The notes under the pieces are model-generated. The model had not been told where the DNA came from. It saw only the letters and a list, made by a program, of their open reading frames with translations, and ran no database searches. Positions 18,347-22,368 of a stretch of DNA of 22,614 nt are shown here, piece after piece. The translations under genes were made by a program, and so were the position numbers. Source of the stretch: a virus; the IMG/VR virus record IMGVR_UViG_3300030101_004561, positions 8,484 to 31,097 of that record; one strand, written 5' to 3'. Every line of letters starts with the position of its first letter. Within the stretch, counting starts at the first letter, position 1.

Positions 18347-18369
18347 TAATTATAAATAACACATTATGA
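18347..18369 (+). repeat. Leader repeat, copy 1 (23 bp including start codon)
   Basis: A 23-bp sequence ending in ATGA (core ATTATAAATAACACATTATG) precedes the 61-aa gene. An identical copy at 18599-18621 precedes the 184-aa gene. The A-rich, Shine-Dalgarno-free leader suits Bacteroidota translation initiation. Confidence 0.7.
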
Positions 18370-18551
18370 AAAACACAATTCAAATATTCTCGAACTCGGA
18401 AATTCTTACATCTAATGCACTAGATAAGTTAGATGCATTTAAAGGACTGAATCCTCATACATTAAGACTTATCAATGCAGTAGTTTATAACGTATGCGAA
18501 CAATTAGAAAATACCGAACAATTAAAAAAGCATTCAATCAAGATTAACTGA
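18366..18551 (+). CDS. First early-arm protein, 61 aa, unknown function
   Basis: 61 residues: MKNTIQIFSNSEILTSNALD, a mostly helical middle, and C-terminal KKHSIKIN. No domain recognised. It is the first gene of the rightward arm and starts within the 23-bp leader repeat. Its last codons (AAG ATT AAC) and stop TGA (18549-18551) are also part of a hammerhead ribozyme: AGATTAA forms stem I and the stop lies in the CTGATGA core. Translation termination and ribozyme folding must therefore compete for the same RNA. Confidence 0.65.
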   Translation: MKNTIQIFSNSEILTSNALDKLDAFKGLNPHTLRLINAVVYNVCEQLENTEQLKKHSIKIN

Positions 18552-18599
18552 TGAGGATTGAAAATCCGAAACTACCTCCTAGTGAGGTAGTCTTAATCT
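18541..18599 (+). ncRNA. Hammerhead ribozyme, type I
   Basis: All core elements are present in order. Stem I 5' strand AGATTAA (18541-18547); core CTGATGA (18548-18554); stem II GGATT-GAA-AATCC (18555-18567); core GAAA (18568-18571); stem III from A18571 through CTACCTC, loop CTAGT, GAGGTAG and T18591; cleavage-site C18592 in the triplet GTC; stem I 3' strand TTAATCT (18593-18599), fully complementary to AGATTAA. Stems are perfect at 7, 5 and 8 bp. Cleavage is expected between 18592 and 18593. The upstream product would keep a hairpin at its 3' end and the downstream product would start just before the leader of the 184-aa gene. Confidence 0.93.
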
Positions 18600-18621
18600 A
18601 ATTATAAATAACACATTATGA
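18599..18621 (+). repeat. Leader repeat, copy 2 (23 bp including start codon)
   Basis: Identical to 18347-18369 over 23 bp. After hammerhead cleavage at 18592/18593 this leader would be nearly the entire 5' untranslated region of the 184-aa gene. Confidence 0.7.
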
Positions 18622-19172
18622 CAAAATATAAAAACACAATTCAACAACGAGTTTTCGAACAACTTGTTGATAAGAAGTCCTTCACTAGGGCAGAACTTGA
18701 CAGAGCCATTTGGATTGCTCAAGGAAATGACACCATACAATTTAATCGTAGAGGAGGATATTATGGTACAAATTTAGCAGTTTGGATTTCTACCAAGCTA
18801 GTTAAAAGAATCAAGAGAGGAGTATTTAAAATTACTTCTAGAGGTAAACTTTACTTAACTGATAGAGGTAGATGTAATAAGATAATTAGAGATGAAAAAA
18901 AGAGAAGAGAAGAATCAAGAAGATTGTATAAATCTATTGATAGACACGTAGACTCTTTCAAAGATTTAGTTGGTACAAAAATAAAATCTGTACGAAGAAT
19001 GTCCCAAGATGAATTAGGTAATTTAGGATGGACAAAGAATCCATTAGTATTAGTACTAGACAATGGTACGTGTTTGATACCACAAACAGATGATGAAGGT
19101 AATGATGGAGGTGCAGTTTTACACTACAATTTCCGTAGAGGAGGAGAATGCAAAATAATTTATACAACGTAA
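18618..19172 (+). CDS. Early protein with helix-turn-helix-like N-terminus, 184 aa
   Basis: 184 residues in two parts. The N-terminal half (about 1-100) is basic and looks winged-helix-like: FTRAELDRAIWIAQG, then VKRIKRGVFKITSRGKLYLT (abridged) as helix and wing, followed by a very charged linker (EKKRREESRR). The C-terminal half (about 112-184) has KIKSVRRMSQDELGNLGW, LVLVLDNGTCLIPQTDDEGN and DGGAVLHY, a domain I recall from many phage early proteins whose function is unknown. It is translated from the leader left after ribozyme cleavage. DNA binding is inferred; it may regulate early transcription. Confidence 0.7.
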   Translation: MTKYKNTIQQRVFEQLVDKKSFTRAELDRAIWIAQGNDTIQFNRRGGYYGTNLAVWISTKLVKRIKRGVFKITSRGKLYLTDRGRCNKIIRDEKKRREESRRLYKSIDRHVDSFKDLVGTKIKSVRRMSQDELGNLGWTKNPLVLVLDNGTCLIPQTDDEGNDGGAVLHYNFRRGGECKIIYTT

Positions 19173-19713: not shown

Positions 19714-19731
19714 GGGAGGAGAAATCCTCCC
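19714..19731 (+). other. GAAA-tetraloop hairpin before hammerhead 2
   Basis: GGGAGGA and TCCTCCC form a perfect 7-bp stem around a GAAA tetraloop. It is not followed by a T run, so it is not a standard terminator. It ends right where ribozyme stem III begins and would stand 6 nt from the cleaved 3' end, a position suited to blocking 3' exonucleases. Confidence 0.75.
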
Positions 19732-19782
19732 TCTGTACATAGATGTGTATCTATGCTGATGATTCCTAAAGGATGAAACAGA
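19732..19782 (+). ncRNA. Hammerhead ribozyme, type III
   Basis: Order: stem III 5' strand TCTGT (19732-19736); cleavage-site A19737 (triplet GTA); stem I CATAGAT-GTGT-ATCTATG (19738-19755), perfect 7 bp; core CTGATGA (19756-19762); stem II region TTCC-TAAA-GGAT (19763-19774); core GAAA (19775-19778); stem III 3' strand completing ACAGA (19778-19782), complementary to TCTGT. Stem II is the weak part: its closing position is a T-T mismatch above only three pairs, so activity could be reduced. Cleavage is expected between 19737 and 19738, leaving the stem I hairpin at the 5' end of the downstream mRNA. Confidence 0.85.
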
Positions 19783-19805: not shown

Positions 19806-20072
19806 ATGTTAAATTCAAAAATTTCAGTCCATTGCAACACAGATAGTAACTTTGTTGCAGTCCACTTAAATACCTCAATGGGATTTGTAGTGCATACATT
19901 TAATGTTACTCCATTAGATGATAAAGAAAGACAATGGAGTTTAGAAGTAGACTCTAGTAAACAAGAACAATTTCAAGAAATTGCAGATTGTTGTCAAACC
20001 ACAACTTTAAAATTAAGACAGAGGTTAGTAGATGAATTTAGAGATAAACTTAAATCAGAGAGAGATGCATGA
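19806..20072 (+). CDS. Early protein, 88 aa, unknown function
   Basis: 88 residues. The N-terminal half is beta-rich (KISVHCNTDSNFVAVHLNTS, then MGFVVHTFNVTPLD) and the C-terminal half is a charged helix ending RDKLKSERDA. Three Cys, no clear metal motif. It starts after an A/T-rich leader downstream of hammerhead 2 and overlaps the next gene by 8 nt. I do not recognise it. Confidence 0.65.
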   Translation: MLNSKISVHCNTDSNFVAVHLNTSMGFVVHTFNVTPLDDKERQWSLEVDSSKQEQFQEIADCCQTTTLKLRQRLVDEFRDKLKSERDA

Positions 20073-21717: not shown

Positions 21718-22368
21718 ATGAAGATACTTGTAGCTTGTGAGGAAAGTCAAGCAATAACAAAAGAGTTTAGAAAATTAGGTCATGAGGCATTTTCTTGTGA
21801 TTTAATTCCTTGTAGTGGTGGTCATACCGAGTGGCACATTCAAGGCGATGCCTTAGAGGAGGCGAATAGTCGCAAATATGATTTGATGGTGGCTCATCCT
21901 CCATGCACCTATTTGTCAGTAAGTGGCAATCGGTGGCTATATAATAAAGATGGTTCAAAGAATGAGGAACGTTGGGAAAATAGGCGAAAGGCATTGTTCT
22001 TTGTCAAGCAACTTATGGATGCACCGATTAAGCATATAGCGATTGAGAACCCAATTAGTGTGATTTCATCACAGATACGAAAGCCTAATCAGATTGTTCA
22101 GCCCTATATGTTTGGGGATGAGGCAAAGAAAACAACTTGCCTTTGGACAAAAAACCTTCCACTCCTGGTCCCTACAAAAACTGTTTCAGATGGGGAGTTT
22201 GTGGAGTGGACAGATAAGAATGGAAAAGTAAAGAAAATGGCTAAGTGGTATGATGATGCACGAAGTCATAAAGACAGAGCAAAACTGAGGAGCAAGACAT
22301 TTCCAGGAATGGCGAAGGCGATTGCGACTCAGTACTCTGAGTATATTATTAATTTAAACCAACAATAA
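21718..22368 (+). CDS. Second cytosine-methyltransferase-like protein (PPC/ENP family)
   Basis: 216 residues, the same length as the other methyltransferase but a different subfamily. Motif I-like ILVACEESQAITKEFRKLGH with FSCDLIPCSGG and W.IQGD; motif IV VAHPPCTYLSVSG with Cys63; motif VI-like AIENPISVI. The C-terminal part has LWTKNLPLLVPT and a basic region RAKLRSKTFPGMAKAIATQY, which ends like the helix after motif X of phage MTases. Proteins of this subfamily are often annotated as phage DNA methylases, though activity is rarely shown. With its neighbour it likely modifies phage DNA early. Confidence 0.82.
   Translation: MKILVACEESQAITKEFRKLGHEAFSCDLIPCSGGHTEWHIQGDALEEANSRKYDLMVAHPPCTYLSVSGNRWLYNKDGSKNEERWENRRKALFFVKQLMDAPIKHIAIENPISVISSQIRKPNQIVQPYMFGDEAKKTTCLWTKNLPLLVPTKTVSDGEFVEWTDKNGKVKKMAKWYDDARSHKDRAKLRSKTFPGMAKAIATQYSEYIINLNQQ

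What the first reader, a model, noticed from the sequence alone, without database searches (positions are those of the whole stretch)
18541..18599. Complete type I hammerhead ribozyme with a stop codon inside its catalytic core
Seen: perfect stems I (7 bp), II (5 bp) and III (8 bp), the invariant CTGATGA and GAAA cores, and a GTC cleavage triplet. The TGA that ends the 61-aa gene is bases 2-4 of CTGATGA and the last sense codons form stem I. A terminating ribosome would cover the core, so translation of the first early gene could block folding, and cutting would follow only after the ribosome leaves. This couples mRNA processing to translation. Hammerheads in phages are known; the stop-in-core arrangement is what I find unusual.
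Basis: partly seen in the sequence, partly recalled or inferred. Interest (0 to 1): 0.88.

Follow-up and report, generated by a model that had tools for sequence, protein, structure and literature searches.

The report
Self-cutting RNA between phage genes
Between the first two early genes of an uncultured phage whose known relatives infect Flavobacteriia lies a complete self-cutting RNA that probably splits the joint message into separate gene messages; hundreds of similar elements sit at the same kind of place in other phages, and some related phages appear to use one such cutter for many sites.

Summary
The hammerhead is real: 18541-18599, type I, stems 7/5/8 bp, perfect core, GTC triplet, predicted cut after 18592, and the TGA at 18549-18551 ends the 61-aa gene. 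A covariance model built without it scores it 58.1 bits (E 5e-14); Rfam misses it at its gathering cut-offs. The stop-in-core arrangement is neither unique nor good evidence for translational gating: CTGATGA holds two in-frame TGAs, and 35 of 156 phage type I hammerheads end their upstream gene there. The general rule is different. In about 120 viral contigs type I hammerheads abut gene ends, and the next ATG lies a median 27 nt after the cut. The window has a second hammerhead, type III, 19732-19782. At homologous junctions relatives swap devices: type III (window), type I (L001) or a catalytically empty site (L334, L335, L341). Best reading: intercistronic mRNA cutters giving mRNAs with a 3' hairpin and a short 5' leader. 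Most novel lead: in three phage lineages one complete hammerhead precedes 1-8 core-less sites matching its two arms, suggesting a natural operon-wide hammerhead acting beyond its own site. Cleavage was not tested. The dicing idea itself was proposed in 2011 (PMC3088659).

The parts
18366..18551 (+). first early gene, 61 aa; its last codons and TGA form the 5' strand of stem I and part of the core
   Evidence: ORF list; 79% identical homologue in L334
18541..18599 (+). HH-A, type I hammerhead ribozyme, stems I/II/III 7/5/8 bp
18549..18551 (+). TGA stop codon inside the catalytic core CTGATGA (18548-18554)
18592..18593 (+). predicted cleavage between C17 (18592) and 18593, triplet GTC
   Evidence: position in the consensus; not tested experimentally
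18571..18591 (+). stem III hairpin, would remain as the 3'-terminal hairpin of the upstream mRNA
   Evidence: role inferred
18593..18617 (+). short A/T-rich leader of the downstream mRNA; TAATTATAAATAACACATTATGA repeats the leader of the first gene (18347-18369)
18618..19172 (+). 184-aa gene downstream of HH-A, unknown function
   Evidence: relatives L001-L007
19360..19707 (+). 115-aa gene upstream of HH-B
19714..19731 (+). GGGAGGA-GAAA-TCCTCCC hairpin abutting HH-B; probable 3' end of the upstream mRNA
19732..19782 (+). HH-B, type III hammerhead, triplet GTA, predicted cut 19737/19738; stem II with U-U at 10.1/11.1
   Evidence: the same 22 fixed core letters in 77 viral contigs
19806..20072 (+). 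88-aa gene downstream of HH-B; homologues in L001, L334, L335, L341

Best explanation
HH-A is a self-cleaving type I hammerhead that cuts the early polycistronic transcript between its first and second genes. Shown: sequence, structure, position, membership in a large phage family with fixed gene geometry. Inferred: cleavage after 18592 in the cell. The upstream mRNA would end in the stable stem III hairpin with a 2',3'-cyclic phosphate; the downstream mRNA would begin with a 5'-OH and a 25-nt A/T-rich leader like that of the first gene. HH-B does the same further down with type III topology, where a separate hairpin replaces stem III as 3' cap. The stop codon lies in the core because the ribozyme is packed against the gene end and its conserved letters supply stop codons.
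For: Structure and family. Geometry: of 203 hammerheads in 119 viral loci, 162 have a gene stop within -15..+17 of C3 versus 61 of 676 other CTGANGA motifs (odds ratio 40, p 2e-84); next ATG a median 27 nt after the cut, 117 of 169 within 20-32 nt. Clusters: 48 of 112 loci with two or more, e.g. 8 in 5.8 kb (L179) and 7 in 3 kb (L019). Device swapping at one junction: before the 88-aa gene homologue the window has type III, L001 type I, and L334/L335/L341 a core-less site; after the 61-aa gene the window has HH-A and L334 a core-less site. Hairpin directly before the cut: 29 of 54 type III sites versus 1% in shuffles and 5% at control positions. No hammerhead in the first 8.6 kb of the record, which carries long minus-strand genes. 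Named isolates carry members: Cellulophaga phage phi19:3 and Flavobacterium phages elemoA-F.
Against: No cleavage data. The viral sample was drawn with a pattern that fixes the core, AA before it and GTC, so sample fractions are not population fractions. L001, 70% identical in the 184-aa protein, lacks a hammerhead at the HH-A junction, so this particular cut is dispensable. Helix covariation in A2 comes from rows chosen for full pairing. Gene calls are simple ORFs except in named records.
Confidence: 0.8

Rival explanations
1. Translation-gated cutting: a ribosome terminating at the TGA in the core blocks folding, so the operon is cut only when the first gene is not being translated.
For: Stop lies in the core; at nearly all type I sites the stop lies -15..+17 from C3, within reach of a terminating ribosome (footprint size from general knowledge).
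Against: Stop position is spread over several conserved stop triplets rather than fixed at +3. Type III and core-less sites have the stop well upstream. CTGATGA unavoidably contains in-frame TGAs.
Confidence: 0.15
2. Mobile or selfish ribozyme cassette: hammerheads spread with small phage genes and have no role for the phage.
For: The leader plus first codons are duplicated on both sides of the 61-aa gene and HH-A; patchy presence at orthologous junctions; same stem I reused within a genome.
Against: Constant distance to the next start codon, hairpin placement, and exchange of unrelated topologies at one junction argue for selection on a cut at that place.
Confidence: 0.1
3. Inactive relic: HH-A has the consensus but does not cut in the cell.
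For: Some members have decayed: elemoD/F have a disrupted stem II where elemoA-C are intact.
Against: HH-A is perfect in core and stems; its stem I/loop II combination fits a subfamily rule: 7th pair with loop II ending in A 12 of 12, versus 6 of 149 without the pair.
Confidence: 0.08

Closest known systems
Clustered hammerheads flanking phage genes (Perreault et al. 2011, PMC3088659; A. tumefaciens ardA, C. scindens, A. caulinodans)
   Same: Hammerheads between genes of phage transcripts; the authors proposed processing into single-gene mRNAs and showed cutting in vitro and, for A. tumefaciens, in E. coli
   Different: There mostly prophages, and no stop/start geometry was found in the passages read; here a phage group with fixed gene-end/leader geometry, device swapping and core-less sites
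Rfam Hammerhead_1 (RF00163), RAGATH-1-hammerhead (RF03152)
   Same: Type I order of stems, same core
   Different: HH-A reaches neither at the gathering score; of ten sources with members scanned none gave a hammerhead hit at gathering score; L128 does reach RF00163 (40.6, cut-off 34)
Rfam Hammerhead_3 (RF00008), for HH-B
   Same: Type III order, core, 29.7 bits
   Different: Below the cut-off of 48.5; U-U instead of a pair at 10.1/11.1, loop I mostly GNGU, shared with most of 74 other phage members
HHphage of haloviruses HF1/HF2 (PMC3088659)
   Same: Hammerhead in an early transcript close before a start codon; mapped 5' end within 3 nt of the cut
   Different: Archaeal virus, a single variant-core element

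Membership tests
Type I hammerhead ribozyme (HH-A) | Core CUGANGA ... GAA, three helices, stem I open | tested here: met
Type I hammerhead ribozyme (HH-A) | NUH triplet 3' of stem III | tested here: met
   GTC 18590-18592
Type I hammerhead ribozyme (HH-A) | Covariance-model match to related ribozymes | tested here: met
   58.1 bits, E 5e-14 with a model not containing it
Type I hammerhead ribozyme (HH-A) | Tertiary contact stem I/loop II | tested here: inconclusive
   Loop II last letter correlates with the 7th stem I pair across members; contact itself not shown, some members are closely related
Type I hammerhead ribozyme (HH-A) | Self-cleavage giving 5'-OH and 2',3'-cyclic phosphate | not testable with these tools
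   needs in vitro transcription
RAGATH-1-hammerhead (RF03152) | Score at or above gathering cut-off 56.3 | tested here: not met
   26.6 bits
Type III hammerhead (HH-B) | Core, closed stems I and II, open stem III, NUH | tested here: met
   stem II starts with U-U
Hammerhead acting on core-less sites (L334, L128, L116 groups) | One core, several sites complementary to both arms, no other core in the record | tested here: met
   core pattern found once in 9 records, in L341 the core is present with a longer stem II
Hammerhead acting on core-less sites (L334, L128, L116 groups) | Cleavage of those sites by the core | not testable with these tools
   needs in vitro assay

The most novel reading that the evidence does not exclude
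In phages sharing the window's early genes, and in two other lineages, a single complete hammerhead at the 5' end of an early operon cuts not only itself but 1-8 downstream intercistronic sites that carry only hairpin + substrate (ACGUC^UAUUACU in L334/L335/L341; ACGUC^UUAUAU in L128; GGUGUC^UUAACC in L116/L054/L051/L097). This would be a natural hammerhead working on many separate substrates, in trans or at long range on the same RNA. Rival: the repeats are leader or phage-promoter motifs of which only the first is cut.
Probability: 0.55. Interest if true: 0.92.

Novelty: new variant of a known kind. Interest (0 to 1): 0.74.

Why it matters
What hammerheads do for phages is described as an open question in the literature read (PMC6155905). 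The fixed geometry gene end - hairpin - cut - about 27 nt - ATG, and the exchange of type I, type III and core-less sites at homologous junctions, point to one answer: RNA-only dicing of operon transcripts into separate mRNAs with defined ends. The answer is testable now, because cultured phages (elemoA-C intact, elemoD/F naturally broken, all on Flavobacterium sp. BAL314; Cellulophaga phage phi19:3) carry members. If the core-less sites are cut, phages have a natural RNA enzyme with many targets.

Tried and rejected
DNA similarity of the region to named phages: none. RF03152 in the window's own record: no hit and no control rang, so uninformative. Search for relatives of the 111-aa gene: none. 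GTDB scan with the type I pattern: 118 stretches, only 6 with a full structure, the rest chance. Blastn of a consensus ribozyme against named phages: nothing useful. A further core-less lineage by pattern: none new. Core-less sites for HH-A's own arms in the window: none. MW202828, the nearest named relative by terminase, has no hammerhead. Considered and rejected: that the stop in the core is a special signal. No paper describing core-less sites or this geometry was found in the held library; the library is partial.

Full report
WHAT IS THERE. The window is 22.6 kb of a 31.1-kb virus record. Its terminase is closest to an unclassified podovirus from a Florida spring (MW202828, 75.6%) and then to phages of Flavobacterium, Cellulophaga and Tenacibaculum. 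Genes on the minus strand include terminase, tail proteins and GroEL; the plus strand from 18366 is an operon of small genes with two DNA methyltransferase-like genes. HH-B, a type III hammerhead, lies at 19732-19782 between the 115-aa and 88-aa genes. Other junctions between these genes are short or overlap. No hammerhead occurs in the remaining 8.6 kb.

IS IT MORE THAN CHANCE. Shuffled windows give one descriptor hit in 3 of 500 cases and never two. A covariance model from 27 other phage hammerheads scores HH-A 58.1 bits. Those 27 were chosen for complete pairing, so the covariation count must not be read as independent proof. HH-B's unusual stem II (U-U, UCC/GGA) looks like a defect but is a family trait: the 22 fixed letters CTGATGATTCCNAAAGGATGAAA occur in 77 viral contigs, and 74 of 80 occurrences in the loci held complete a type III structure, mostly with loop I GNGU.

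THE FAMILY. Ten sources with members, scanned at Rfam gathering scores, gave no hammerhead, so such elements are largely invisible to standard annotation; L128 is an exception. Stem I is typically 6 bp flanked by A and A, with loop II UNANU; a second form has a 7th A-U pair and loop II ending in A, and HH-A belongs there (12 of 12 versus 6 of 149; several rows come from one contig, L179).

GEOMETRY. 162 of 203 hammerheads have a gene stop at -15..+17 from C3, against 61 of 676 other CTGANGA motifs in the same loci; the next ATG is a median 27 nt from the cut. Stops at +3 are 35 of 156, at -1 30, at -7/-6 42. So the stop in the core is one of several recurring solutions. The sampling pattern favours some of these; in members outside the pattern +3 is 4 of 36. 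In phi19:3 the deposited annotation places the stop of gp051 at 21812-21814, directly before the core. Type III sites put a separate hairpin before the cut in 29 of 54 cases, as the window does at 19714-19731, and their ATG follows the ribozyme by about 20-30 nt.

SAME JUNCTION, DIFFERENT DEVICE. Before the homologue of the 88-aa gene the window has type III, L001 (51.7% identity) type I at 1525-1580, and L335, L341 and L334 (31, 28, 26%) a core-less site. After the 61-aa gene the window has HH-A; L334 (79% identity) keeps the codons AAG ATT AAC TGA that form stem I in the window, but has a core-less site instead of a core. L001 has nothing before its 184-aa homologue; L003 (35%) has a type I hammerhead there. 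This supports selection for a cut at given junctions more than for a given ribozyme.

CORE-LESS SITES. L334 has one hammerhead in the leader of its first plus-strand gene and 8 further copies of ACGTC-TATTA(C/T)T, each 26-27 nt before an ATG, nearly all directly after a hairpin, none with a core. Over the whole 41-kb record there is one core, and 8 exact sites, all on its strand, one its own and the others downstream. L335/L339 and L341 have the same plan; L128 has one core and 4 sites with different arms; L116, L054/L100, L051 and L097 have one core and 4, 3, 2 and 1 sites with yet another pair of arms. Arms fit the far sites as well as or better than the near one: L128 and L341 pair 5 positions of stem III with far sites but 4 with their own. 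Requiring both arms and an ATG, 47 sites are found against 10 on the other strand and 9 with reversed arms; several loci are overlapping copies of the same phage, so independent lineages number three. Cautions: the arms are weak (-1.3 to -5.6 kcal/mol per helix), repeats could be leader or phage-promoter motifs, and a few sites follow a hairpin plus T run. Most other hairpins have no T run, which speaks against simple terminators.

MECHANISM. Most likely RNA-only dicing of the early transcript. Steps shown: structure, family, placement. Steps inferred: cleavage, protected 3' hairpin, short-leader 5'-OH mRNA. Translation gating is possible but unsupported.

KNOWN OR NEW. Perreault et al. 2011 (PMC3088659) found clustered phage hammerheads and suggested processing into single-gene mRNAs. 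What I did not find in the literature held is the fixed gene geometry, the swapping of devices, and core-less sites. Hence new variant of a known kind for HH-A and its family; the core-less arrays would be more if confirmed.

Noticed in passing
L334, L335/L339, L341, L128, L116, L054/L100, L051, L097: One complete hammerhead followed downstream by 1-8 intercistronic substrate-like sites without a core, matching both arms of that hammerhead.
   Followed up: partly
L351 1436-1503: Hammerhead core between tRNA-Gln and tRNA-His genes; predicted cut leaves one G before the ARAGORN start of tRNA-His (1504), the position of the G-1 of tRNA-His.
   Followed up: partly
L368, L369, L370 versus L252, L371 (elemo phages): Type I hammerhead intact in elemoA, B, C and with disrupted stem II in elemoD and F, all isolated on Flavobacterium sp. 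BAL314; a type III hammerhead lies in the leader of the first gene of the early operon in all five.
   Followed up: partly
L251 (MW202828) 14257-28089: About 13 copies of the palindrome GTGTCGTTAACGACAC at gene junctions shortly before start codons, with no hammerhead in the record.
   Followed up: no
window 18347-18373 and 18599-18625, with 18369-18383 and 18630-18644: Direct repeats of leader, start codon and first codons on both sides of the 61-aa gene plus HH-A, suggesting insertion of a gene-ribozyme cassette.
   Followed up: no
L179 (contig binned as Aliivibrio sp.): Eight type I hammerheads in 5.8 kb, gene by gene; leaders resemble those of the Bacteroidota phage group, so the contig may be a misbinned phage.
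   Followed up: no
L128 2160-2195 minus: DUF805b RNA (RF02914), 50 bits, above its gathering score.
   Followed up: no
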